Source: Gaeumannomyces sp. JS-464
Taxonomy: Eukaryota; Ascomycota; Sordariomycetes; Magnaporthales; Magnaporthaceae
Length of the DNA: 64,000 nt
Reading direction: 5' to 3'
NCBI GenBank assembly: GCA_002197995.1
Contig: NGZR01000002.1
Span: forward strand, 9,362,001 to 9,426,000
A program made the translations under genes and the position numbers. Numbering within the stretch: position 1 is the first letter of the stretch; each line of letters opens with the position of its first letter. The notes below the pieces were generated by a model. That model made no database searches. It saw only the letters and a program-made list of their open reading frames with translations, and was not told where the DNA came from. Below are positions 7,192 through 58,100 of the stretch, piece by piece.

Positions 7192-7927
7192 ATGTCAGAT
7201 CGACAGCAATTGCCGCACCCGCCAGAGCTTCTTTCCAGGGCAGGGCTCGAGCCCTGGCTGGTGGAAATGCGGATGAAGATGGCCATCGACGGGCCAGCGA
7301 TCGGGGGCAACGAGGCCCGATTTTTTTACGTCTTTTCACGCTTGGGAGCCTTCAAACAGCAGTACCTCGATTACGTTACTGTTACCGCCACGGCGGCAAG
7401 CAACGGAGGCCCCCAGGCCGGCCCGGAGGAGTTCCTACAGCAAATCGCCAGGGACTTGGGAGACGTACGAAAAGCCCGGAAGGCCGCCTAGCATTGGTGA
7501 CGATGCGCTAAGGGAGGGAGCCGCTGGCAGAGTTTTTGGCTCGTTGGGATCGGGAGAGATACGCCGCGGGTGCAAAAGATTGGTCCCCAGGGGCCCTGAT
7601 TGCCCTGCTGGCCGCCGGAGTGTCGCCGGCTCTCCAAAAACGACTCGATCTCGAAACGACCTGGCCAGACGAGGTGCCGGCCTCCTGAACCTCCTGCGTG
7701 GATTCGAAGGGGTTTTCGGAGGCGCACAAGGACAAAATGCTGCAGAGAGGTACGGAGGCGATCCGGGCCCGGGCGACGCTATGGAAATAGGGTCGGCCAG
7801 GACCCAAACCGTTTGTTTTCGGTGCAAGCGTCCCGGGCATTTCAAAAGGGACTGTCCCCAAGGCAGGGGGACGTCCGGAATCGCCTCGATTTTTACAAGG
7901 CAGCAGGGCGGCGAGGAGGAGGCGTGA
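7192..7927 (+). pseudogene. gag: gag of the small LTR element, split over three frames
   Basis: The first frame (7192-7491) gives a capsid-like start MSDRQQLPHPPELLSR..WLVEMRMKMAIDG..NEARFFYVFSRLG. A second frame (about 7512-7690) gives REPLAEFLARWDRERYAAG and LIALLAAGVSPALQKRLDLE, typical of fungal retrotransposon Gag. A third frame (to 7927) gives the zinc knuckle CFRCKRPGHFKRDC (C-X2-C-X4-H-X4-C) at about 7817-7858. The first shift coincides with an extra G in a GGGAGGG run near 7512-7518. Gag would package RNA into virus-like particles. This copy is broken by small indels, not by RIP. Confidence 0.82.
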
Positions 7928-27525: not shown

Positions 27526-29059
27526 ATGGCCGAGCCTGTCGGCGTCACGCTCGGCGTGCTCGGCATCTCGGGCCTGATAAGTGTCTGCCTTGACTGCTAC
27601 AACTTTGTGCAGGATGGTCTTTCAATCGGACAGAGCTACGCCCAGTTCGAGGCTGACATGAGCCACCAATCCGTCCGCCTCTTTGCCTGGGCCAAAGCAT
27701 GCGGCTACATGAGCGTCCAGGGCCAGATGCACGCCTCAGTGGCGGGTGGGAGCGCCATGTAAAGATGCAGCTGAACTGCATCGCCCTGCTTTTCCTGGAC
27801 GGACAGAAATTGGCGGGGCGGTATCGCGTCGACGACTTGGCGTCCCGATCCTCCATCGGATCCAGTGTCGTTGCCGCAAACTCGCACTTCTTCGAGAATG
27901 GGCTGAAGGACGCCCTCAGCAGCATCCGCGGGACAAAGAGAAAGCCGGGTTTCGCGGGTTTTTTGCATTCGGGCTGAGAGACAAGAAGCGATGCGAGGAG
28001 ACGGTCCAAAACCTGGAGAAGTGTCTCACCGCGCTGGAATTTGTGGCCCAGAACTTGGACCTGTTCCAACTCGAGAAGGACATCATCAAACATGAGATCG
28101 AAACAAGCACCAATATCGACGCCCTACAAAGCATGGTCGTCGCCCGGCCCGGGTCGGACCAGGCGAGCCTCATCTCCGACGCTGCAAGCCAGCGCATTCG
28201 CCTGATCGATAACGCGGCGACTCTTGTCTCTGGATCCTCGAGCCGGGGTGGCGAGCGGCAGACTTTTGTCACTGCCCCGTCACACCTATCGCGCATCGAA
28301 GAAGATGGACAGGACGACCATCCCATCGGGAACGCACCGGCCGTTATAGCTACACCCCGCAGTGGTGAGCGGCCGAGGCCCAGTACCAGGCAGAACATTC
28401 GTATTATGCGCGAGCTGCTCAAGAATGGGCAGCAAGAGAAGCCCGTTCTCCATCTGGACGACAAAGGATGGGGCGACCGCTTGCAAATCCTGAAATGCAG
28501 GGACAGGCGCCAGTTTGATGCATTTTTAATGGGCCAGCATGACGAAAAATACGCCCTCGGCCAAAGGTGGCTTCTTAAGCAAACACGGCAATTACTCCAA
28601 GACGACGGTCTTACTTGGGTATCGATGCAAATCTTGGAGTTTTCGCCCGAGCGATCGCTGGCTCGCATCACTTTCGAGGGGTCTCCTCAAAGCGTCTACC
28701 AAGGCGGCATCTTCCACGCCGTCATGACTTTTGGGACCAAAAGCCCGATCGATCCACCGAAGCTCAGGATTCTAACCAAGATTTACCACCCCAACATCAA
28801 TGCTGTTGGAAAAGTGTGCATGGACTACCTTCAAGATGGTTTATGGAGTCCCGTCATTTCCATCTGGTCGGTTGTTGTTGGGCTCATATCTTTACTTTCG
28901 GACCCGGCCGTGGACGATCCGTTGGTTCCGGAAATAGCACAAACTTACGTGTTGGACAGGGAAATTTACAACCACAACGCGAGGATGGTGACTGCAAACC
29001 ACGCGACAACCTTGCAAAGCTACCCAGAGTTCGGGGTTGGTCCAGAACTGTTCGAATAG
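27526..29059 (+). pseudogene. HeLo-domain / ubiquitin-conjugating E2 fusion, two frameshifts in the HeLo part
   Basis: From the ATG at 27526 the frame encodes a HeLo domain start: MAEPVGVTLGVLGISGLIS, then CLDCYNFVQDG..IGQSYAQFE, closely resembling the first helices of HET-S. HeLo sequence goes on in another frame (about 27740-27950: MQLNCIALLFLDGQKLAGRY) and ends in a third (FGLRDKKRCEETVQNLEKC, from 27970). The third frame then stays open to 29059. After a linker of about 170 residues it gives an E2 fold: HPN motif at 28787-28795, catalytic Cys at 28817-28819 in GKVCMDYL, and LISLLSDPAVDDPLVPEIAQ. No GT-AG intron explains the two frame changes, so they are mutations or assembly errors. HeLo domains form membrane-active cell-death oligomers in fungi; E2 enzymes carry ubiquitin as a thioester. 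If intact, the protein would link the two. Confidence 0.82.
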
Positions 29060-29207: not shown

Positions 29208-32200
29208 TCAAGTGGCGTTGGTCTTCAGCCATCTCTTCAGAGCCGCGCGATCTATCTTGTGCGATACTGTCCTTGGGAGTCGCTCCACGGCGAGCCACGC
29301 TGACGGTACCTGCTCGGCGGGCAAACGAGACGACACGTATTCCCGCACCGCCTCGAGCCTTTGACCAACGACGTCATCGGGGACTGAAACCAGCGTCCTC
29401 TGCGGCGCCGCATCGCCGCGACGGGAGAGCTGCCCGTCCACCAGTCCGACGACCGCGACGAGCGCCGTCCGGCCCGCCGCGATCCTCGACACCACCGCCA
29501 CCTCGCGGACCAGGTCGGACGGACACGACCGCCTCGATCTGCTCGAGGTGCACCGTCGATCGCCGCTGAGCCGCGCCCGCGACGACGGCGCAATTGTCCG
29601 CGCGCCGACCAGGTGGATGCTGGGGACCGCGCTTTCCAGGTCGTACCGGCCCAGGTCACCGGTGCGGAAGAAGAAGCGCGGAGTCTTGGCCTCCCCGTTG
29701 CTCTGCGATGCTGCCGCCCAGCGCGCGGCGCCGGGATAAAGCTGGCCTTGGTCGCTCTGATGCCATTGTCGCTGACATAGCGGCGCGCGGCGGCCAGGCC
29801 AGGGCCCTCGACCAGCAGCTCGCCCACGCCGCCGAGCGGTGCCAGCTCGTCCGGGTTTGAGGGATTGACTATCCATACGGCGCAGCCGATCGGCTGGCCT
29901 ACGCTTGTGTAGCTGCCTGGGGCGGCAGGTGTGCTCCCTTCACCGACCTTGTCGGCTTCGTTCTGGGCTTCGAATACAGTGCTGAGGACAGAGGCCTCGG
30001 TGGCACCCCAGCCTACGAAGAACCGTCGACCAGGGGTGCTCCACTTTTGGCGCATCTCTTCAGTCACGCCGTCGCCGGTGGCAAGCACCGAACTAAGACA
30101 CGGAACCATGTCTGGGGAGAGGCAACTGAGGATATGGGGATGCAAGATAGCCCAGTTCACCTAGGCCGAGGCGATAAAAGCGGACAGACGAGGGACGTCG
30201 CCTTCGGACCGCACCGTCGGACCGGCGCAGAAACAGCCACCAAAGCAAAGAGCCGCGAGCGTCTCGATCACGCTTGCGCCTGTCGACAGCGGGGCGGACT
30301 GCAGCATTCGGCAGTCCGGCCCCCAGCCCAGCCGCTGCGCCAGCGCCGCGAGCGTCTGGCTGAGGTTACCGTGGGTCAGCTCGACAGTCTTAGCCGACCC
30401 TGTGACGCCGCTGGTGGGGACGATGCAGGCAGGGCCGTCATGGGTGGCTTCTTCTTCCGCTATTTTCTCTTCGGCGTCGTCGCCGTCGCCGTCGGAAACG
30501 TCCAGCAGCGACCCCTGCTCGCCCAGCAAAATAACCCCTCCGGGGATCTGCCCGCCCCTGAGCGGCAGCACGCGCTCTGCCGTCCCGAGTGACTTCCCAC
30601 CTCCCGAAACGGAAGCCAGGCTGAACTGGACGCCCGCGGCGGCCAGGTACGACATCTTACGGCTGCGTTCCGGCTCATCGTTGTCCTCGAGCACGTCGAT
30701 GGCCACGTACGCGCCGCCAGCCTTGAGGATCCCCAGCACGGCGACGGCGGCCCAGACGGACGGCGCGAGCAGCACGCCCACGCGCGAGCCCCTCCGCACC
30801 CCGAGCCGCCGCCGCAGCTCCGCCGCGAGGCGGGAGGCGCGCCCGTCCAGCGCCGAGTACGTCAGGCTCTCGGCGCCGTGTTCCGTCGCCGACGACACGG
30901 CCACGGCGTGCGGGCGCTCCCGGGCCTGCCGCTCGAACAGGGCGTGGAGTAGCAGGGCCGGCGGGCGCGGCGACGCCGTGTCGTTCCAGCGCGCGATCTC
31001 GGCCGCGGCGTCCGGGTGGAGCAGCGGCAGGGCGTCGAGGCGGGTGTCAGGGGCCGCCTCGGTCAGGAGCCGCAGCGAGTGCTCGAGCTGGGCGAGGATG
31101 CGGTCCAGCGTGCGGCGGCCCACGGCCCCGGCGTCGAAGCGGGTCCAGAGGGAGACGTCGCCGGCGTGAATTTTAAAGCTGAGCTGCAGGGGGTGCGTGC
31201 CGTTCACCCAGACGAAGTAGTCCATCTTGGCCTCAGCGTCGGCGTCAGGCTTCGCCGTGGCCGCACCGTCGGCCGCGAAGGGACGGACGTTGATGAGCGC
31301 CGTAAACGCCGCCGCCCTCGCGGCCGCCACCCCGCCCCCGGCCAGCTCCGCGACGCGCGCGGGCCCGCAGTGCAGCAGCGCCGGGTCCTGGCGGAACAGC
31401 TCGCGCAGGGCGGCGGCGCGGTCGCGGACCAGGCGGCCGACGGTGGTGGCGCGGCGCGGCAGGATGGCCTGGACGGGCACCTCGGTGAGCGTGGGCCCCA
31501 GCGCCGCCTCGAGGCCGCCGGGCAGCGGCGGCGAGCGGCCCGAGAGCACGCAGCCGTACGCGACCGACTCGGCGCCCGACAGCGCCGAGGCCGTCAGCGC
31601 CCAGGCGGCCTCGATGAAGAAGGGCACGTGCGACTGCGGCACCGCGCCGTCGGCCACGCGCGGGAGCGGGGTGCGGCGCTCCGGCTCCTCGAGGATGTTG
31701 GGGCGGCGGCGGCGGCCTTGGTGTGCCGTCGGGCGGGCGGCGGGAAGATGGCGGGTGCGCCCTGGAAGCGGCCGGCCCAGAACGAACGGGCGGCGGGCTC
31801 GTCGAAAGCGAGACACCGAGCCACGAAGCTCTTGAAGGGCGGTCTGGCCACGAGACCCTGCCCGAGGTAGAGCGAGGGCACGTTTACGTTTATCAGCGTC
31901 GTTAAGGACTAGTTGTTTGTCACGGCGTGGTGGACGGAGGTGATGAGCGTCTGGCCGATGAAAACGGTCCGGAACAGCGGCCGCCGAGGCCCATGGGCTC
32001 GGCATCGCCGCCTCCGAGATAGAGGCGGACCTGGTCCTCCTCGGACTCGTCTCCGTCGACGGTCCGACGGGCCGTCACATGGTCTCCTCTCAGCACGACC
32101 TGGACGATCTCCGGGCCCGCGTCGCCGTCGCCGTCCAGGGGCGCGAGGCGGGTGCGCAGCACGGCGTTGGCGGCGACGACGTCCCGGACCGCGGCGCAGA

Positions 32201-33324: not shown

Positions 33325-34130
33325 CTAGGCTCGGCGCGGGGGTGCCGGCGCTGCTTCCGTTTGGAAGGTCGGACAGCTCCCGAAAGGCCCGTCCGCCTGC
33401 TCCTTGCGGCCAAACAGGATTCCAAAGGTTAGAACGTGAGCGATCTTGGCCCAGGCCGGCCGGCTGTCGATCACCTTCTCCCCCTCCACCTCGGCCCCTT
33501 CGCGGGCGAGGTAGACGTGGTGGGAGTGGGGCAGGAACCTGCCCGGGTGCCAGACGTCCCAGATCGAGACCAGTCCCCGCCGCTTTGGATCCTGGGGATT
33601 GATGACTTGCTGTCGTCGCTAACGCAGGGCAGGAAGGCTTCCACGGGTAGCGACTTGCGCTGGGCGTTGCCGAGGGTGCCCGGGGTGGCGACGTTGGGGG
33701 TAGCCCATTTCAGACGGGCGCCTGCCCAGGCCCCGGACTGCCACTCCAGGACGAGGCGGGCGAGGTCGGCGTGGCGCGTGAATAAGCTGAAGAGCGGATC
33801 GGCCGACGAGAACGAGACGTCGTCCATGACGCCGCCGAGAGCGCAGTGGCCCGACGTATGCGGCGTGCCGCCCAGGCACGTGTTGAAGTCGACGTAGGCC
33901 GCGCGCTGCACACCTCGGCCTGCGGCTGGGCCACCATGTTGAACTGCGTCTGAGAGAGCTGCCGGGTCAGGCACCCGGGCCCGCCGCACGACAGATCGAC
34001 GTTGAGCTTGCTGGTGATGTTGGCGAGCGGGCCCATCGGTCACGCAGTCGTTCTCGTCCATGTTGATGACGCTGCCGAAGCCCGTGGCCGGGCCGAAGAT
34101 GGACCGACGGCGAGAACGTCGCATCTTGTT
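33325..34130 (-). pseudogene. Tyrosinase remnant, CuB half only
   Basis: Minus-strand frames in succession give FGPATGFGSVINMDENDCVTDG (about 34030-34095), GPLANITSKLNVDL and LSQTQFNMVAQ, AAYVDFNTCLGGTPHTSGHC, ALGGVMDDVSFSSADPLFSL (about 33800-33870), RHADLARLVLEWQS, then a tail HPGRFLPHSHHVYLAREGAE ending in TAG at 33325. Order and spacing match the second copper site and C-terminal region of fungal tyrosinases, which oxidise phenols in melanin or metabolite pathways. The CuB signature DPLF.LHH is degraded to DPLFSLFTRH, at least three frameshifts occur, and the CuA half is absent. Confidence 0.72.
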
Positions 34131-34500
34131 CTTTAACACTCGTATGCGGACACTGGCGTGAAGCGTCTTCCAAACACTTACTGCCCGGCCGGGCCTCACG
34201 GTTATGCAGGGCCTGCGGCCAGAGATGTCGCCCTGTACGGCTCATACCGCGTGGGACGGTTATCTTCGGTCTATCTTCGGTGTGTCTTGCTAGCGAACGG
34301 TGGTTCGATCGACAGGGGAGATCATCGGTACGCGAAGATGGTCCGAGGGGAGCAAATAAACAGCGTCGTTCAGAAGCTCCTTTGGCAATCCAAGACAGCT
34401 TGGGTAGTCCACACACTTTGCTTGGTGGGTAAGCAAGCACTCCACGAGGATCGGTGGTAACGAGTAGCATTAGCTAGCTGGGAATATCAGAACTAGAAAC
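34131..34500. other. Short intergenic stretch, nothing recognised
   Basis: Between the 3' end of the DUF3176 gene and the tyrosinase remnant; no CuA motif of a tyrosinase could be found here. Confidence 0.5.
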
Positions 34501-36310
34501 TCATCCAAGCCTTGCCCTTGTAGACGCCGCTCTCCTCTTCAACTCTCCCATGTCCTGGACCTCGGGCTGCAGGGTCGCAGCTCCTCCGGACCGACCATCA
34601 TCCGAGACCCTGTGAAGAAGGACGGCAACGTTTGAAGATTTCCACGGCTGCAAATCCCTGCACGCCGCCGTTCTCGCCAGAACCAATCCCAACAGCAACG
34701 CGCTGGCCAGCTGGACGGCCAGCGGAAGCGCCAACCACATCCACTGCACCTGGACAAAGACGACCTGGCGGATCGTCCCCGGGCGCAGTCGCGTCGAGCG
34801 TCGAGCGCAGCTGGTCCGACATGCTGCGCGTCATGTTGCGCATGATTTCTGCTATGTCCCGGACGTGAACGCGGATCCAACGCCGGCCTGGAGTTGCGGT
34901 GGGGTCGAGATTCCGTCGTAGGCATCGCCAACGAAACGTGGCGAGCGGAAAAAGTCGTTAATGGCAAATATGTCGGCGATTTTGATCCGGAGGGCGGGCT
35001 GGCCGGTCTGATTGAGCATGACGGTGATGCCCAGTGGGCTGGGGTCGCCTGGTGTCATCGGAATGTTTTCTTGAAAGCCAATGGAAAGGACGCCGCCCAA
35101 AGCGGTAATATTTGAGAACCTTAGCGCCGCTAGGCTGATATCGCACTCCACGATTTGCGTTTGGTTTAGGCGGAATATATAGTTTGGCACGTCCCTCGCG
35201 GTTCTTAAAACTGCTACGCGGGCGATGTCCGGCCGCTCGGGAATCAGGGGTGGCGAAGGCACACCATCTGTCCGAGAGCTATACCAGCGAGAGTCTTTCA
35301 GGAGGGTGATCGAATTGACGCTGATGACGGTTTGCCAGGATGTCCGCGAATACGCGGCCGACATGTTAACACCGCCGGGCGTGATAAGTCTCAGGTCCTG
35401 GGTATTACTCCCCGTCCATAGCGAACGGTCCACGGAGTCGAGGGTTGCTGTCGTGACATCGGAGCAGGTGCTCATAAACCCCAGAGAGATGTATGGGCCA
35501 TCCCAAGAGCAGGAACCGGGGCACCTGAATAAGACCGGAGAGTCGAGACCAAAGAGGCCACGATAGATTGCTCCCTGCATCGAGACATCGGCGGTCGTGG
35601 CTGCGGACTTGACCTGTCAGTAAAGGCGGGATATAGCATGGTTGTTGTGGATTTGCAAACTGACCATCGACCCTAGTAAAGGAGGGGGAAAAAGTGATGC
35701 CCTGGGGAGCGCTGGCATTGGTAATATAGTCATGAGAAAGGCCGAGCACAGCCCTCCCGTCATCAAAGCCAACGTCCCTGGGCTCCAGCCGTACCAGCTG
35801 CTGGACAAAGACGTCAAACCCCAGCGCCAGCACCGTCGCCAGCGCCCCGATCGTGGCCAGGCCCCACGGGCCGGCGCCCACCAGCTTCAGGCTGCCCATG
35901 GGCCCGCGGCTCGCCTCCTCGAAGCGGTCGAGGTCGCCCAGCGGCCGCGGTGGCCCGCCGGCGGCGCCAAAGTGCAGCCACTTGGACTGGCTGATGCTGG
36001 CGCCGACGGCGACGGCGGCCAGCGATTTAGCCGCCGTGCTGAAGACGGCAATGGTCGCGGGCAGGCTGAGGAAGAAGGTCCAGTCCGTCAGGGGCCGGCC
36101 GTTCATACGCAGGAGGACGACGACGATGCCGGCCATGCACGCGAGGCTGGCCACGACGGCCAGCGTCTCCCACCACCATGCCCAGGACTGCCTGCGCGCT
36201 CTCGTCTTGGGGGGCTCGGTGTCGCCGCTGTCGTGTTCATGGTGGTGCTCTACCGTCACAGGGGTCGACTTCATCAGGGGCGAGACGACGGATCCAGGCC
36301 CGCGATCCAT
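34501..36310 (-). pseudogene. DUF3176 family membrane protein, one intron, two late frameshifts
   Basis: Exon 1 (36310-35672) encodes a soluble N-terminus, then WWETLAVVASLACMAGIVVV, a second hydrophobic segment around FFLSLPATIAVFSTAAKSLA, the family signature ISQSKWLHF..RPLGDLDRFEEASRGPMGSLKL, and a third segment ending FDVFVQQLV. A 58-bp phase-0 intron (35671-35614, GTCGAT...CTGACAG) leads to exon 2, QGAIYRGLFG and CPGSCSWDGPYISLGFMSTC. Near 34870 the frame slips (GVGSAF to VHVRDIAEIMRNMTRSM), and near 34780 it slips again at a CCCGGGG run before the last transmembrane segment WMWLALPLAVQLASALLLG and the cytoplasmic tail with WKSSNVAVLLH. The family is common in filamentous fungi and its role is unknown. 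Confidence 0.8.
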
Positions 36311-37204
36311 CGTTGCTAGGTCACTGCGGTAGGACTTGGGGCTGAGGTTGTGACGCGAGCGGGCTAAAGCAGCGCCCTCGAGGAGGGGGAGACCTTTGAG
36401 GGATAAGTCTGAAATATGTATAAATCAGCTAAGGATTTGGGGCGGGATAGGAACTTGAAACCCAGGAACAGAATGGGGGGCTGTAAAGGGGGGCAGCGGT
36501 TCCCAAGACCGGTCAGGCTGGTCAGGCTGGCGCGCTCAGTATCACCAGCCTAGCAGAAGAGCCGCAACAGCCCATTTACACGGCATTAAACCCCAGCCTG
36601 CCCTCCGCATGCACCGGGGTCGCAATCGCGGCCGCCCCCAACTGCGCAGCCTCGGTGGCGGGATGCGCGTGGCTTTGTGCAGATGTGACAATGACCTTGT
36701 CTTGGCATGCCTGGGTCGTGCTATTGGGGGCAGCAGAAGCGCCAAAAGCGCATTTCTTCGTTCAGCTGCGGGGATGGTGCACGGGTTGGACACGAGCACA
36801 GTAGGTAGGTGTGTAGGACGGGGGGTGGTGCAGCGCAGCGAGTCCAACCAGCTCGAGCCGGGCACTGGAGCAGTGGACAGGCTGCGTGAGGCAGGCTAGC
36901 ACGCGTAGAGCGCGATGCTCCCCCCGCCGTGGTGGCAGCAGGCGCCTACATCCTCCACCGCGAGCAGCTCCCGCTCGACTCTACCGAGTGCAACCTCACG
37001 GTCGCAGGTAGAGGCGCTAAGAAATCCCCCGGGTACGGATCCCGAAGCCCGGGCTGTACAGTAGGTGGACAAAAAAAACGCCCAACCCCGCACCACACCA
37101 AATAAAACGGCCAGGGGTAAATCCAACCCTTCTACTTTGGAAAACCGCCCTAGGCCCAAACAAATGCAATTCGCATAGAAATTTGCACTGGAAATACATT
37201 ATTA
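36311..37204. other. Intergenic, nothing recognised
   Basis: GC-rich with short open frames on both strands; no motif, no consistent coding frame. It includes the presumed promoter of the DUF3176 gene. Confidence 0.5.
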
Positions 37205-39655: not shown

Positions 39656-41766
39656 ATGCTGTGCGATATATGCAAGGCCGCGCTGCAGCCAGTGACATAC
39701 TTCGTCGAGTCACATCATACAACCTTAGACTCCTTACAGCACTCGGTTCAGATCGGATGCTTCATCTGCACCTCTGTCTGGACAGAGGTGCAGCGCGTGT
39801 CCGATCTGCCCAGCGGCTGGGAGGCAACTATCACCTCTGCAGATTCGAGCTTTGGGATGGTCCAAGACGGCTCAAACGCCTATGTCACTCTCCACATACA
39901 GCGCGACATTCCTTACAGGCAGCTGGAATCGAACTACGGTTTTACGCTCCTCGACGGCCACGGTAGGTTCCGTTCGATCAGAACCCATGGCTGCCAGGGC
40001 TAATGTAGCTAACGTATCTACCTATCTCACCTATTATAGACCACATCGGGATTGCCAGACTGTCTCCGAGCACGCGATCCACACAGACCTTCTCCACGGC
40101 CAAACACTGGATCAAAGCTTGCACGCAGTCGCACGAGGAATGCAGCCGTCACACTGCCAAAGTGGCCTGGTATCCGACTAGGCTTCTCAAGCGCAGCGTT
40201 AACGGGGACACAGAAACGCTTCGCCTGGTCGAGACCAGCAAATCTACCGTCGACGGACCGTACATGACACTCAGCCATTGCTGGGGCAAGGCAGACTGTT
40301 TGAAGCTGGTAACAAATAACTATACCCAACTTCTCCAGGACATCCCCCTCTCGACCCTTCCGCAACTGTACCGCGACGCCTTGACCGTCACCAAAGAGCT
40401 CAGTGTCGAGTACCTCTGGATCGATTCCTTGTGCATCATCCAGCATGGTGACGATGGGGCCGATTGGGGCTGTGAGGTCACTCTTATGGACCAGGTTTAC
40501 AGCAACTCCTTTTGCAATATATCGGCCCTCACGGCGCCCGACAGCCACCAGTCCATGTTCCATGACCGCAACCCGGACGCTTTTTGCCCGCCAAAGGTCT
40601 GTTTCAAAGACAAAGCCGGACTGCCAAGGGAAGGCCGCATCGACTCGGCTGTTATCGACGAACAGCGTACTATCATCAACCACCCAGGAATTAAGTGGGA
40701 CAAAGAAGTAGTCGCGGAGAGACTCAACACGCGGGCGTGGGTGCTTCAGGAGCGCCTCCTGTCGCCCAGGATCCTCCACTTCGGCCACAGCCAGGTCTAC
40801 TGGGAATGCCGGTGCCTTGAGGCTTCAGAGGAGTGGCATGGAGGCTTCCCGGAAAATCTCTGGCGGGACTCCTTCTGTCAGAGGGGCTTCTACTCCCACA
40901 GCTACACCCCAGCGGTGTGGGAGCGAATTATAGAAGTCTATTCCGCCTGCGACGTGACGTTTCCGCAGGACAAGCTCATCGCCATCTCCGCGCTCGCGAG
41001 ACGTGCGGCGGCTGCGTTTCAAGACTCCTATGTTGCCGGCATGTGGCGCAGCGCCATCGAGGACCTTCTGTGCTGGCGGGTACTCCCAAGGGCCCGTCCG
41101 GCCACGGCCAGAGCGCCAACGGGGCCCACAGAGGTCTACCGTGCCCCAAGCTGGTCCTGGGCTTCGTTGGACTGTCCGGTAAATTTTGCGAGTCGCGTTC
41201 GGCCGGGATTGCTCGTCAAGGCCCAAGAGGTGCACCTGGACTATGCCACTGCCGACAAGATGGGCCGTTTAAAAGGCGGGTGGCTACGTCTACACGGGCT
41301 TTTGCTGCCAATGGAAGCGCGGCCAAAAGGCCAACAGAGCCTACACAAGTCCTTATCCCTGGGCTGGGGTGATGGCAGGTGCTATTTCACCATAGACGAA
41401 GTCACGCGCTTTCTTGATGCTCAAGACCAGCACGATCGAGCCAGACTTCTCAAGAGTGCGGAAGCCGGGTTCTTCCACTGCGTGCCAATGTGGATCAACA
41501 AGGTTACCAGCACCATTCCTGGCCCGTATGGAAGGCCCCTGACTTCGGATAAGGTAATATTTACCATGCTTTTTTTAGAACGGCTAGTTAACGAGGGCCG
41601 CCGGGGCGACTTCCACCGTGTGGGCTGTGCCCATTTCTATCTCCTTGCGTCGGATTTGCCCATATTGGAGAAGCCGCTTGGATTCGCCCTAAAAGATGAC
41701 ACAGTGGACTGGAGTCCGTTGCGAGACGTCGTTTCAGCCGGGCTACAAACATTTACGATAGAGTAG
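39656..41766 (+). CDS. HET-domain (heterokaryon incompatibility) protein, one intron
   Basis: Two exons, 39656-39962 and 40040-41766, joined by a 77-bp GTAGGT...TATAG intron, give 677 residues without a stop. The join keeps the frame (DGH|D|HIGIARL) and restores TAKHWIKACTQSHEECSRH. The N-terminus LCDICKAAL..SVQIGCFICTSVW is the cysteine-bearing leader common before HET domains. The HET domain proper has YMTLSHCWG (about residue 176), YLWIDSLCIIQ (about 226) and AWVLQERLLSPRILHF (about 332), followed by WECRCLEASE and APSWSWASLD. HET domains are TIR-related and trigger cell death after fusion of incompatible strains. This is the only clearly intact large gene in the island. No partner such as an NLR is visible nearby. 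Confidence 0.93.
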
Positions 41767-49623: not shown

Positions 49624-51482
49624 ACGTGGTTTATAAGCGAGTGCCACATATAAACGAATGCCACAATTAACGCGTCCACGCGTTAATCCAACTTTATCCA
49701 CGAATATTTTTATAACAAATAATAGCAAACCAAAACGACGAAGGCAAAATTGTTTTAGCTTTTTAAACGATCGCATCGAATTTATAATTAAATATACGGG
49801 GCGCCGTTAAAATTTACGAAATCGACTTTTTCACTTTCGCCCGGCGAAAACGCGGTTAATTTGCTTAACGCGACATTATGCTTAAATTACAAAAATTAAC
49901 GGAATCCGAAAAGGAAGCGCTTATTAAGTACATATTTAAACTGGATTCGCGAGCATTCCTTTCTTAGCTTTTTGGTATTAAAAATATGGCTAACCGATTA
50001 CTTGCCGAACGCGACGCGAGCGCCGTTGGTAAAAACTGGGTTGCGAATTTCGTTAAACGCCGCGTAAAGCTCGGTACGCGTTAAATTCGAAAGTACGATT
50101 ACCAAAAAGCTAAATGCGAAAATCCTAAGCTCGTTTTTGCGTAATTCGACCTTATACGGAACATTATAGCTAAATATGGCATTATAAATAACGATATTTA
50201 CAATTTCGACGAAACCGGCTTTTTTATAAGCATAATCGCCGCCGTTATAGTTATTACAATATCGAAAAGCCGTAGTAAAACAAAGCTAATTTAGCTTAAT
50301 AACCGGAAATAGGTTATAATTATTTAAAAGGTTAATTGTTACGGTTAAACGATCTTTTTTTTTATTATCGTTAAAAGGTAATACCATTTAGCCAATTGGT
50401 ATTCGAAAACCGACCTTTTACGAAACTAGGTTATTTTAACGAATTTTAACGGGTAAATTACGAACGAGCTCGGTTTAAAATGGATTTAACATTTCGATAA
50501 ACATATTGCAGCTCGTAAAAAAAGGTCCTATTGTTTATTAATACTAAACGGGTATAAAAGCCACTATTCGACGGATTTCGAGCTTTATTGCTAAAAATAT
50601 AACATCGTTACTTTGCATGCTTTCGTATTCGTTTTACTTTTTTTAGCCGCTTAACGTTAAATGTTTTAGCCCGTTGAAAAAAGCGTACGGTTAATAAATC
50701 GAAAATTTAATAAAATTACACGTTAACCACGTAATTAAAATCAAGTTCCTTTCGGCGTTTAAAGCGGCATTTTTTAACTTTATAACTGAAAAAAATATTT
50801 AAAAAGGCTTTCGAAAAGCTAGCTTTGCTTTTTTTAATCCGAATTCGGTTTTAAAAAAGCTGGATATAAAGCTACGAATTTTAACTCCCTTAAAAGAACT
50901 TTTAAATAACGCCGAACTTTGGATTTTTAAAACGCTTTAAACAGTTAAAAACGCAACTTCGCAATCCGAACATATTAAAACTCGAATTTCCAATTACCGA
51001 AGTAGCTTTTTATTACCCATATTAACGGTTGTAAACCAATTAACGAAAAGGGCTAAAGCAATTATGCATTAGGTTAACTTTTTAAAAGAAAAGTGCTTTA
51101 AGCTACGAAAAGCGAACGAAGCGCTAAGCAAACGCCGAAAGGTTAAAAAAAACACGTGTTTAACAAAAAGGGTTATATACTATCGAAAAAATACGAAATG
51201 TTTTAAACCAGTAGGAGCTAAATAGGCAGCTATAGTAAAAAATGCGCGATTATAAAGGTTAAAAAAAAAGGCGACGACGATTCGTCGGCGATATAGCACT
51301 TGCGGCAAAACCGGACACAATGCGCGCATTTGCCAGGAAAAAGTAAAAACGTTCGATATATACAATTTTAAGTAGTTTAAATAAATTCCTGGCGTTATTA
51401 GGTTAGCATGCGCGTCGATTAACCGGAGGTCGGGTGTAAGTGTGGCATTCGCTTATATGTGGCACTCGTTTATAAACCACGT
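49624..51482 (+). mobile_element. Fot1/pogo-like DNA transposon, full length, RIP-mutated
   Basis: 1859 bp with 45-bp terminal inverted repeats (49624-49668 and 51438-51482) that differ at three positions and are flanked by TA on both sides (49622-49623, 51483-51484), the target duplication of this superfamily. Each end is itself made of two related words, CGAGTGCCACATATAA and CGAATGCCACA. The interior is a transposase gene on the plus strand. Confidence 0.92.
49878..51375 (+). pseudogene. Fot1/pogo transposase remnant with C-terminal zinc knuckle
   Basis: ATG at 49878 starts MLKLQKLTESEKEALIKYIF. The CENP-B-like DNA-binding part has MANRLLAERDASAVGKNWVA and NFVKRRVKLGTR, then KYDYQKAKCENPKLVFA and the catalytic-domain start IYNFDETGFF, where the first Asp of the triad survives. 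At least three stops lie before this motif (near 49965, 50082, 50142), all explicable by C-to-T or G-to-A. Near the 3' end a different frame shows YSTCGKTGHNARICQEK (about 51292-51342), a CCHC knuckle seen in many fungal pogo transposases. Not functional. Confidence 0.87.
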
Positions 51483-51484
51483 TA

Positions 51485-52640
51485 ATTGCAAATTATTATG
51501 CCTTTTCCCGAGCTTTATACGTTTAATAGTCGGCTTATAACTTATTAGCTATTAAAGCTTTATAGTAATTTTAAAACGCTTACGTTATGCTTATTTCCTG
51601 TTTTCGTTTTACAGCTTCCCTTTTAACGTAAGCTTTTTAAAATGCATTTCCTTTTTTATTTTAACTTGTTCGAAACTAGGATTTATTGCTAACAATGTTT
51701 TAAATTCCCTTTTTAAAATGAAATTATGCAAAACCGTAACGGCTAATACGACATCGATTTACAAGCGGATATCGTAACCAAAAAGCGTGCTTTTAATAAT
51801 CTTTTAACGGCTTTTAAAATCGCCGAAAGTCCTTTCGATAACCACGCGCATTTTTGCATAATGCAGGTTAAAAACTTCGGCGGGGGTTTCCGGCCGGGCT
51901 AAACTTTGTTTTTAAAAGTAATATTTCGTCGTTATAAACGGGGTTATTACCCCGGTGTTTTAAAAAAAGCCGGCATTTCTAAAGTAAAAATAACCTTTTA
52001 AAATGCGGAATCCGGCTTGCTAAGCCTTCCTAAGCAATAAAAAGTCGTGTATCGAGCCTTCGGCGCTAGCTATAACGAAAACGAACCGCCCGCCGTAATT
52101 TACGGCCGCCAGGACGTTTTGTGCCGTTAAGCCCTTCCGACTTTTTTAAGCGATCTTTTCCGCCGCGCTAACTTTAGCGTTAATTAAAATCCCGTCGATG
52201 GCTTTTAAGCACCCAGCAAAAGCCTTTCGGACCTCCTATCGCTTAAAATCAGGCTATTAAACGTCGGATATTTCCGGCAACGTTACAAACGCGGCGTTAA
52301 AAGCGATTATGGTTTGCAGCACCTCGTAAAAGTACCGGTGCACCGTAAAAAGGCTGTGGTTAAAAAAATAAGCCGCTATTCGAAAAAAAACGCTTTGCCT
52401 ATAGATATATAAAAAATAAGCCACTTTTTCGCGCATAAAAACTAGTTTTAACCCCGGAAAACCCGTATACGTAATTAGCTAGTCGCAAAAGCTTAAAAAA
52501 GTGCTTTAAGTAACCCGAAAAAGCTTTCGGAAGGCCCGGGCGGCCTCGGGCCGTTGCTAGTATTGGAAAAGGGTGTCGCCGGAAAATGCTATCGTATGCA
52601 CGGTTTGTAAACCTCCGTTTAAAAACCCAGAAATGCAAGT
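51485..52640 (-). pseudogene. PIF/Harbinger transposase remnant, copy 2
   Basis: Reverse-complement homologue of 23431-24500: 51485-51660 matches the region after ALHNFI, 51700-51790 the ALHNFI segment itself, and 52399-52638 supplies the N-terminal part missing from copy 1 (MHFWVFKRRFTNRAYDS..HPFPILATARGRPGLPKAF..LLRLANYVYGFSGVKT). Homology with copy 1 stops abruptly at the TA next to the Fot1 element. RIP stops throughout. Confidence 0.78.
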
Positions 52641-55189: not shown

Positions 55190-58100
55190 GCTATTAGCCG
55201 TTGCAGTACCTCCGGTGCAGCTGCAACGCTTCGGGCGTATGTTGTGGTGCCGGCGGGAGGCCTATAGCCTTATACCGATCCGGAAAGTTGTTTTTAAACC
55301 ATGCGTTCCGGGCGTCCCGGGCCGTTTTCCGGGCTAAAGCCTTTACTCCGGCCACCGTTGGTTTAAAATGTTGGGGTATTGGCAGGGCCGATCCCAACTT
55401 TGCTTCGGCGTTTGCCTTTTCGTTTCCGGGGATTCCCATATGGCCCGGGGACCAGCGTACGTATACCTGGTGTTTATCCATAAGGCAATGGATTTTTTTT
55501 AAAGCCTTTTAAACTATTAGGGGCCGTGCTTAAACAGCCGTTGGCCGCCGAGGTGTTATCGAGGCACAAGTGGAAAGTGCAATTGCGGAAGCTCCAAACG
55601 GCTTTACGGAGGCCCATCCGGGCCCCTTCCGCCTCGCCGTCGAATACTTCCGCGGGATGCGCCAGCCGGCCGTGCCCGGAAAGTTTGCGTTGGCCGGCTT
55701 GGTATATTACCCAGCCGTATCCAACTGCTCCGTTTTTGCTTTGGACCCGTCGCTATATATTATAACGTCGGTGGGTGGGAGGGTGCAAAGCCACGCCGTA
55801 AATGCTTTAGCGGCTGCTTGCTTTTCTTGTATGGCCACCGTAAGCCCCGTATATTTATAAGGGAGGTAGGCCGGGCGGGTGCAAGCCGGAAAAAGTCCGG
55901 CCGTTTTGCAAGGAGGTTGCAAGCCTGCCGGGTAAGCCTGCCTAGGCCCTCGGGCGTTAAGGGCCGGCTTAGCCGCTGCGGCCAGGGTGTTTTTCCGGAA
56001 CCGTATTTATACGGGCCGCAAAACGGAGGCGGGCTTGTTCCAAAAGCGCCTGGGCGTTGGGATGCCGGATTCGTAATGCAATGCGTTTATCGGTGTGGTT
56101 TTCCAAGCTGGGACCACTGCCTTAAGGGACGCGGTTAAAGCTTTATCGACCCGATCGATTAAATGGCCTTGCGGATAATTTGCTGTTGTGCCGGCTTGTA
56201 CGGGTGTGGTTTAGTTTTACCCCTATACCATACCTCGGCCCCGTATAAAGCCGTAGGGATTATAACCGTTACGGCTTTGTAAACCGAATGTGCCGGTATC
56301 CCCCCTATCGAATTCGTAAGCCTTCGGAGGTGGTTGGCAACGCTTTGGGCTTTTGCAGCCCTGTTTTCCACGTGGGCTTTAAAATTAAGCCTTTGGTCGA
56401 AAAGGACCCCTAACCACCGTAAAGCTCCTGTAGCTTGTTGTATGGTAAGGCCCTCCGCCGTAACCGCTGGGGTTGTGGGATTTCTCCGTTTGGAAAAATG
56501 CATAAGCTCGCACTTCCCCGGGTCGAAAGCAACCTTATTAGCCCTGCCCAACGTAGGATTTCCGTAACCGTAGCCCCTGCTTTACGGGAGCACTTCCGGA
56601 GTGCTACCCGTTACGCAAATGCCTATATCGTCCGCGTATCCGTACTAATCGCTTTTGCTTTGGGTAGGATTTCGGCCATATAAAGCATAAATAGGACCGG
56701 TAACGCCGGTAACCCTTGGGGTAGCCCGCAGTCCGGGGAAAAAGGGGGTGCCGTGGCGTCCTCCAAACGCACTTTAACCACCCTGTTTTGCAAAAAATGA
56801 TACCCATCGTACTAACGTTGGATCCCAGCCTTGGTTTAAAAGCCTTTAAAAGCCTCCGGCGAAGTACGGCGTCGAAAGCCCCTTGTACATCCATGGTAAC
56901 GAGGGCGGCCGTTTTATGCTTTTGGAAGGCCCGTTCCACCTCGTGGGCCACGCATGCCGTTAAATCGATGGCGGCCTTTTTCGGGGTAGCCCCGGCGTGT
57001 TGCGGGGCTATAAGCCCGTGTTGTAATGCGAGGGATGCCATCCGCGAAGCCACCAGCCGCTCCAGCCCTTTCCCTAAGCACGGGAGTAAAGCTATCGGGC
57101 GGTAGGATTTTGGGTCCGTTAAATCCGTTTTATTCGGCTTTTTTAGCATAACCACTTCCGCTGTGCGGAAAGGGGCTGGGTGGTGCCCGGCTAAGCAAGC
57201 CTCGAAAAGGCCTTAACGTATTCCCTATTGCCGGCCACGCCGCTGTAAGTAGTTAACCGTTAGGGAATCGACGCCGGGGCCGTGTTTGCCGTGCTAACGG
57301 TGCATTTCCGGCATTCCTTTAAAAGGACGTAAGGGTTTTACGGAAATTGTGCGGTTTTTTAGGTAGCCCTTTATTGTAACGGGTTTTTTTGTAAATCGTC
57401 CTCCGCCGTAAACCTACGGAGGATTTTGCGGCTAATGCTTCCGCTTTATCCCTGGGGCTATTATAACCTCCCCGTTAATATTTAACGGGGGAAGCCGTAT
57501 AGCGGGTGTAAGTTTATGCCACTTTACAGCACGGTATAGCGCTTTCGGGAATCCATTTCCTCCAGCACGCTGGCCCAATGCTGTTTTTAGCCGTCCGAAC
57601 CGTTGCTTTTAAAGCACGGGCTTCGGCCGTAAAAGGCCCGCCGTTTCCCATAGCTTTTGCAAGTCCCGTTGGCGTTGGCGCACTTTTCGTTCCACCAGGG
57701 TTGGCCTTTTCTTTTGCTTTAGCCCCCGGCCGAAAGCCATTAACGCATTTTTTAATAAGTTTGTTAATGCTTCGGCCGCTTTATCCAGGTGTTCCGCAGT
57801 GCCTGGGTTTGTAAGTGGTGGCAAGTTGCCGGCCCCCGTTGCTACCGCGTTTGCGAAAAACGGTAGTTTATCGTTTGGTAGCGTAATACGCCGGCAGTCC
57901 GGAACGAAGTTATTGCGGTTAGGAATTTCGATCCGTATCGAGCGGTGGTCCGAATCGGTTGCTAGCGAAGGTCGATTTCCGCTGTTGCTAAAGGGGCGTT
58001 GGAAAAGGTAAAATCCAAAACGCCCCGTCGTTATGCGTAGGTTGGCCTGGGTCGGTAAGTAGGAGGAGGTTATAAGTATTAGCCCATTGGGCTATATCCT

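What the first reader, a model, noticed from the sequence alone, without database searches (positions are those of the whole stretch)
27526..29059. HeLo cell-death domain fused to a ubiquitin-conjugating (E2) domain
Seen: the N-terminus has HET-S-like HeLo helices (CLDCYNFVQDG...), and the C-terminus an E2 fold with HPN, catalytic Cys at 28817-28819 and the DDPL..EIA segment. Known: HeLo domains act as membrane-targeting death effectors in fungal allorecognition and are usually coupled to prion motifs or NLR proteins; E2 enzymes carry activated ubiquitin or ubiquitin-like proteins. Inference: the fusion may place a ubiquitin-transfer step under HeLo oligomerisation, or the E2 may mark targets during incompatibility. 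An E2 with its catalytic Cys retained argues that conjugation, not just binding, was the original role. This is the most unusual protein architecture in the window.
Basis: partly seen in the sequence, partly recalled or inferred. Interest (0 to 1): 0.8.

Follow-up and report, generated by a model that had tools for sequence, protein, structure and literature searches.

The report
Fungal death domain fused to E2
A fungal cell-death (HeLo) domain really is joined to a ubiquitin-transferring (E2) enzyme in a protein family found across many fungi, and in close relatives the side of the E2 that normally grips its partners is unusually variable, although the copy in this window is split over three reading frames in this assembly.

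Summary
The fusion is real. A HET-s-type HeLo domain (start 27526) is followed by a UBE2D-like E2 (HPN 28787-28795, Cys 28817-28819). The window copy is not one open frame: HeLo runs through three frames with two breaks, while relatives are colinear. This assembly also breaks frames in conserved genes, so decay and assembly error cannot be separated; a paralogue on contig C23 has two nonsense codons.

Of 99 distinct proteins from two searches, 72 carry both domains; the four named species looked up fall in four Pezizomycotina classes. HeLo and E2 distances correlate (r 0.86), as one old fusion predicts. The catalytic Cys is kept in 72 of 73.

New here: in a clade of 16 relatives HeLo averages 88% pairwise identity, but the RING-binding regions of the E2 (helix 1, loops 4 and 7) are hypervariable; in canonical UBE2D-like E2s loops 4 and 7 are the quiet part. 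The pattern recurs in the window's lineage but not in every close pair. I read this as a death effector whose E2 partner face diversifies (allorecognition or immunity). Function is untested. No paper on the fusion turned up in the open-access library searched.

The parts
27526..27762 (+). HeLo domain, first part (first frame, ends at an in-frame TAA)
   Evidence: PF14479 positions 1-60, E 3.2e-14; 87% and 85% identical to P0001 and P0002 over the BLAST stretch
27720..27965 (+). HeLo domain, middle part (second frame)
   Evidence: tblastn with P0001 and P0002, both 79% identical; no Pfam match on its own
27929..28132 (+). HeLo domain, last part (third frame)
   Evidence: PF14479 positions 145-204, 18.8 bits, under the cut-off; tblastn with P0001 and P0002
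28133..28555 (+). Linker, mostly low-confidence in the model, with short motifs shared by relatives
   Evidence: Alignment A1; model of the window piece, pLDDT under 50 at residues 97-148
28556..29002 (+). E2 (UBC) domain, UBE2D-like, complete from helix 1 to the last helix
   Evidence: PF00179 E 1.6e-29; UBE2D1 in PDB E 3.6e-31; model matches UbcH5A, TM 0.92 by target length, 38% identity
28736..28753 (+). E2 loop 4 (UBE2D residues 58-63), variable partner-binding segment
   Evidence: HPN-anchored numbering and site entropies
28787..28795 (+). HPN motif
   Evidence: Sequence; invariant in the unanchored alignments of 20 and 42 rows
28817..28819 (+). Catalytic Cys codon
   Evidence: Sequence; Cys in 72 of 73
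28832..28870 (+). E2 loop 7 (UBE2D residues about 90-101, one extra residue here), variable partner-binding segment
29057..29059 (+). Stop codon of the third frame

Best explanation
The locus is a copy of an old Pezizomycotina gene family, HeLo-linker-E2. The HeLo part is homologous to the membrane-attacking domain of HET-S, and an E2 sits at the C-terminal end where HET-S carries its amyloid trigger. I propose that the E2 keeps its chemistry but uses its partner-binding face (helix 1, loop 4, loop 7) as a diversifying specificity module: binding of, or ubiquitin transfer with, a co-diversifying partner (an E3, an allelic product or an invader's E2-binding protein) decides whether the HeLo part is held off or released to kill the cell. 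Shown: the fusion, its joint inheritance, retention of catalytic residues, and a variable partner face in several clades. Inferred: E2 activity, gating of HeLo, the partner, selection, and a role in allorecognition or immunity. Whether this copy makes one protein is open.
For: 72 of 99 distinct proteins carry both domains. HeLo aligns to HET-s structures over residues 1-227 of P0002 (E 6e-15). HeLo and E2 distance matrices correlate over 72 proteins, r 0.86 against at most 0.134 in 999 permutations. Catalytic Cys in 72 of 73, Asp117 equivalent in 70 of 73. In a clade of 16, over 120 pairs, mean identity is 0.88 for HeLo, 0.38 for E2 helix 1, 0.42 for loops 4+7 and 0.87 for the rest of the E2. 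With the RING-binding residues given in PMC4944129 (legend passage) the clade's entropy is highest of 147 circular shifts; in 116 canonical UBE2D-like E2s the same set ranks 99 of 146. Same direction in the window lineage and one more group of four.
Against: No DNA of the relatives was at hand, so positive selection is not separated from relaxed constraint, and gene conversion could also make HeLo look over-conserved. The face that varies also binds E1, so charging is uncertain. The pattern is not universal: P0043/P0051 show no contrast, P0017/P0044 the reverse, and in P0037/P0033 and P0053/P0055 it is slight with helix 1 as conserved as the rest; outside the clade the E2 core is sometimes more conserved than HeLo, as in P0084/P0045. 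The clade's members come from unnamed sources, so alleles, paralogues and species are not told apart. Both copies in this genome carry lesions.
Confidence: 0.5

Rival explanations
1. Regulator: the E2 ubiquitinates its own HeLo part or its complex, with ordinary E3s, and so controls turnover or trafficking of a death protein. Loop variation is drift of partner use without a recognition role.
For: Catalytic residues kept. [quoted passage not shown]
Against: The canonical RING contacts are mostly gone: Phe62 in 27 of 72 and the SPA triplet in 8 of 67 scored, against 114 of 117 and 113 of 116 in the canonical control. In P0060/P0062 the loops are 50% identical while HeLo is 99%.
Confidence: 0.25
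2. Integrated decoy: the E2 imitates housekeeping E2s that invader proteins bind or modify, and capture releases HeLo killing; catalysis is not needed.
For: HeLo is a death domain and the E2 is UBE2D-like; decoys of this kind are proposed for plant NLRs (search listing only).
Against: A decoy should keep the canonical face and may lose the Cys; the family does the opposite.
Confidence: 0.12
3. Relaxed E2: the E2 is losing partner binding and its face decays, with no recognition role.
For: Loss of the canonical RING signature and lesions in both local copies.
Against: The rest of the E2 stays 87% identical in the clade and catalytic residues are kept across the family; decay should reach them too.
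Confidence: 0.13
4. This local copy is a pseudogene (a statement about the window only; it can be true together with any reading above).
For: Two frame breaks in 1.5 kb; a neighbouring AMP-binding gene is also split over frames; the C23 paralogue has two nonsense codons.
Against: Frame breaks with no room for an intron also occur in an HSP70 gene (two) and an RNA polymerase second-largest-subunit-like gene (one) of this assembly. My rough estimate from these controls is three breaks in about 16 kb, which makes two in this gene about a 3% event: not decisive.
Confidence: 0.5

Closest known systems
HET-S/HET-s of Podospora anserina (HeLo, PF14479)
   Same: HeLo domain homologous over its whole length, with the hydrophobic N-terminal segment and the SDAA end segment
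   Different: HET-S ends in an amyloid domain templated by an NLR (PMC9815663, passages); this family ends in an E2
UBE2D/Ubc4-type ubiquitin-conjugating enzymes
   Same: Fold, HPN, Cys, Asp117 equivalent, DPLVPEI
   Different: Fused behind a HeLo domain; helix 1 and loops 4 and 7 variable and mostly without the RING signature
MLKL (animal necroptosis)
   Same: A membrane-attacking helical bundle with a C-terminal enzyme-type fold, and ubiquitin acting on the bundle (PMC12881547 passages; PMC8816944 listing)
   Different: MLKL carries a pseudokinase and is ubiquitinated by others; here an apparently competent E2 is in the same chain
HNWD allorecognition proteins (het-d, het-e, het-r)
   Same: A diversifying recognition part in a protein that controls cell death (PMC2873952, abstract)
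   Different: There WD repeats of a STAND protein; here an E2 face on a HeLo protein, and no incompatibility has been shown

Membership tests
HeLo domain (PF14479) | Pfam match above the gathering score | tested here: met
   First part 53.7 bits against 23.2; the last part alone 18.8, under it
HeLo domain (PF14479) | Homology to the HET-s HeLo domain over its length | tested here: met
   Tested on orthologue P0002, residues 1-227 against 2wvn, E 6e-15
HeLo domain (PF14479) | Hydrophobic N-terminal segment used in membrane attack | tested here: met
   Best 19-residue hydropathy 2.0 in the window, median 2.02 over the 52 of 73 with a recognisable start, lowest 0.15
HeLo domain (PF14479) | Cell-death activity | not testable with these tools
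   Needs expression
HET-S/NWD2-type two-component system | C-terminal amyloid motif | not tested
   An E2 fills the C-terminus; no amyloid-motif scan was run
HET-S/NWD2-type two-component system | Adjacent NLR gene | tested here: inconclusive
   No NACHT or NB-ARC match in 20 of the 72 long open frames of the window that were scanned
E2 ubiquitin-conjugating enzyme (PF00179) | UBC fold | tested here: met
E2 ubiquitin-conjugating enzyme (PF00179) | HPN, catalytic Cys and Asp117 equivalent | tested here: met
   All present in the window; family 72 of 73 Cys and 70 of 73 Asp
E2 ubiquitin-conjugating enzyme (PF00179) | Thioester formation with ubiquitin | not testable with these tools
   Needs a charging assay
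Canonical UBE2D subfamily | RING-binding signature Phe62 and Ser-Pro-Ala | tested here: not met
   Window has Ile at 62 and SPV after the Trp; family 27 of 72 and 8 of 67
Fungal allorecognition (het) gene | Polymorphism under balancing or diversifying selection and an incompatibility reaction | not testable with these tools
   No population DNA or genetics at hand; only protein-level variability

The most novel reading that the evidence does not exclude
A widespread fungal immune family in which an active ubiquitin-conjugating enzyme is the polymorphic specificity module (self/non-self or invader) of a membrane-killing effector: the E1/E3-binding face of the E2, normally strongly conserved, diversifies under selection while the chemistry and the killing domain stay fixed.
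Probability: 0.4. Interest if true: 0.87.

Novelty: new variant of a known kind. Interest (0 to 1): 0.68.

Why it matters
HeLo killers are known as parts of NLRs or as effectors triggered by amyloid templating. A HeLo-E2 family would put ubiquitin transfer in the same chain as the fungal death machinery, next to the ubiquitin control of MLKL in animals. It would also give a natural collection of E2s with altered E3 faces for asking how E2 specificity evolves, and a concrete candidate behind the reported enrichment of ubiquitin-degradation domains among genes up-regulated in incompatibility in two fungi (PMC3689799, passages).

Tried and rejected
Intron reading of the frame changes: rejected for the window copy, because relatives continue residue by residue with no space for an intron and the C23 paralogue lies in one frame over its length. 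RIP as the cause of damage: six AT-rich or TE-like stretches of the window tested show RIP-type indices (CRI 0.74 to 1.24), the two HeLo-E2 genes do not (-0.9 and -0.6); a few RIP-type changes in the C23 copy are not excluded. NLR next door: none in 20 of 72 long open frames scanned. HeLo by structure: E2 rows filled the listed matches and the HeLo part of the model is of low to middling confidence, so HeLo homology rests on sequence.

Tree of E2 domains: 72 of 73 fusion E2s fall in one clade (support 0.68) together with 8 of 14 proteins annotated as E2 only, and without the 29 canonical E2s and the 5 other E2s of this genome that were sampled; a larger clade with 13 non-fusion E2s has support 0.99. 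P0040 fell outside and its pair values are misaligned. So one origin is likely but not strictly shown.

Pair table: loops 4+7 below the rest of the E2 in 27 of 32 chosen pairs (2 of the 27 involve the misaligned P0040), 3 equal (two of these pairs are identical over the compared parts), 1 reversed, 1 not measurable.

Control set: the best 120 listed of 7200 hits to one UBE2D-like query; 117 had the full region and 116 were kept for C85 and W93. Picking close hits favours conserved loops, so this is a null for UBE2D-like E2s, not for every E2 type. In 867 of its 6670 pairs the loops are less conserved than the rest, in the clade in 120 of 120. The HPN count is partly by construction, as HPN was the anchor; the alignments are not anchored. 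Helix-1 numbering in the clade is shifted by one against UBE2D and was treated so. The linker patterns are loose.

One search failed by a script error and was redone. An HMM control with the acetyl-CoA carboxylase family did not complete.

Papers. Passages only: PMC12881547, PMC9815663, PMC4986451, PMC12258605, PMC10197012, PMC3689799, PMC5654768, PMC4944129. Abstract and outline: PMC2873952. Search listing only: PMC8816944 and the decoy papers. 'Not found in print' rests in an open-access library without preprints and without most subscription journals; searches returned no paper, one search returned 8 (passages read in two of them), one search listed 15 of 73. UBE2D residue roles other than the ranges quoted from PMC4944129 are recalled.

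Full report
What is there. The window is 64 kb of a 53 Mb fungal assembly (contig C12, 9362001-9426000 of 9596913). A HeLo domain begins at 27526 and an E2 occupies about 28556-29002, with the stop at 29057-29059. Pfam finds HeLo positions 1-60 (E 3.2e-14) and UQ_con positions 31-138 (E 1.6e-29). HPN lies at 28787-28795 and the Cys codon at 28817-28819. The reading frame changes twice inside HeLo.

The relatives. A search with the third-frame piece gave 35 proteins, 19 of them with both domains; the closest named one is GGTG_02436 of Gaeumannomyces tritici, 67% identical. A second search with an alignment gave 71, of which 59 carry both, 53 of them new. Together 72 of 99 distinct proteins are HeLo-E2 fusions. 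Four named species were looked up and fall in Lecanoromycetes, Eurotiomycetes, Dothideomycetes and Sordariomycetes, all Pezizomycotina. Ten fusions were rescanned with Pfam: all ten have HeLo ahead of the E2, some with a long linker or tail, and one has ankyrin repeats behind the E2. HeLo and E2 distances over 72 proteins correlate with r 0.86; the highest of 999 permutations was 0.134. That is what one old fusion, inherited as a unit, predicts. An E2 tree agrees without proving it.

The unexpected part. In a clade of 16 close relatives from unnamed sources (the nearest named protein in the tree is from Letrouitia) the E2 changes faster than HeLo in 120 of 120 pairs. Mean pair identity is 0.88 for HeLo, 0.70 for the linker and 0.73 for the E2; within the E2 it is 0.38 for helix 1, 0.42 for loops 4 and 7, and 0.87 for the remainder. 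In P0060/P0062 HeLo is 0.99 and the loops 0.50. Helix 1, loop 4 and loop 7 are where UbcH5a meets RING domains; a published figure legend gives residues 1-12, 58-63 and 94-99 (PMC4944129, passage). For that set the clade's mean site entropy is the highest of 147 circular shifts; in 116 canonical UBE2D-like E2s the same set ranks 99 of 146, loops 4 and 7 having entropy 0.23 against 0.59 elsewhere; 2000 random subsamples of 16 canonical E2s gave at most -0.13 for loops minus other sites, the clade 1.04. At an overall E2 identity of 0.70-0.78 the loops are 0.85 identical in canonical pairs (n 967) and 0.43 in the clade (n 92). The same direction appears among the window, the C23 copy, P0001 and P0002, and in the group P0003/P0005/P0007/P0036. 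It is not universal: P0043/P0051 show no contrast, P0017/P0044 the reverse, and P0037/P0033 and P0053/P0055 only a slight one. The RING signature is mostly gone: Phe62 in 27 of 72 and SPA in 8 of 67 scored, against 114 of 117 and 113 of 116 in the control.

How it may work. HeLo domains attack the membrane through an N-terminal helix, and in HET-S this is released when a C-terminal amyloid trigger folds (PMC12881547 and PMC10197012, passages). Here the trigger's seat is taken by an E2 that keeps its chemistry and varies its grip. The reading I favour is an effector whose E2 is both enzyme and specificity module. A decoy should keep the canonical face and may drop the Cys, the reverse of what is seen. 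Simple decay should reach the rest of the E2, which stays 87% identical in the clade. Ubiquitin control of a HeLo homologue has a precedent in MLKL (PMC8816944, start of abstract). In P. anserina seven of eight further HeLo genes rise in incompatibility, and genes up-regulated in both P. anserina and N. crassa are enriched for ubiquitin-degradation domains (PMC3689799, passages). Every functional step is inference, and without DNA of the relatives selection cannot be told from relaxed constraint.

State of this copy. The window copy has two frame breaks; the C23 copy (6971496-6972941, minus strand) has two nonsense codons in its HeLo part. A genome search with P0002 found no third HeLo-E2 locus among the best candidates scored. 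The assembly also breaks an HSP70 gene twice and an RNA polymerase subunit-like gene once where no intron fits; HSP90 and the two other RNA polymerase subunit-like matches were unbroken over the matched stretch. So the window breaks may be errors; from these controls I put two breaks in this gene at roughly a 3% chance, which is not decisive. I leave it open. The locus borders AT-rich, RIP-like sequence, and a HET-domain gene lies 11 kb downstream (40009-41763).

Known or new. The domain pair is visible in databases, which label such proteins by one half or the other. Seven literature searches found no paper on the fusion (limits under Tried and rejected). I file it as a new variant of a known kind: a HeLo protein with an E2 in place of the amyloid module.

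Noticed in passing
window 29252-32074, minus strand: An AMP-binding (NRPS-like) gene split over two frames, next to the HeLo-E2 locus.
   Followed up: no
window 40009-41763, plus strand: An open frame of 585 aa with a HET domain (PF06985, E 2.5e-28), 11 kb downstream of the HeLo-E2 locus.
   Followed up: no
window 33474-34241 and 35408-36424, minus strand: A tyrosinase fragment and a DUF3176 frame.
   Followed up: no
window 1-26000 (parts) and 50001-52000: AT-rich stretches with RIP-type dinucleotide indices (CRI 0.74-1.24 in the stretches tested); a zinc-knuckle frame at 7277-7924.
   Followed up: partly
window 56607-57212, minus strand: A reverse transcriptase fragment (PF00078, E 1.5e-8).
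   Followed up: no
G000 C1:7197157-7199045 and C30:2601795-2602890: Frame breaks without room for an intron in an HSP70 gene and an RNA polymerase second-largest-subunit-like gene: this assembly seems to hold single-base indels.
   Followed up: yes
window 28133-28555 and relatives: Short linker motifs, loosely [FY]xT[AG] and QNxRI, found by pattern in 62 and 63 of 72 fusions; role unknown.
   Followed up: partly
protein P0098 (Rhizophagus irregularis): An E2 at the N-terminus of a protein that also carries PF05699, which I recall as the hAT transposase dimerisation domain.
   Followed up: no
protein P0089 (Seiridium cupressi): HeLo, E2 and ankyrin repeats in one predicted protein.
   Followed up: no
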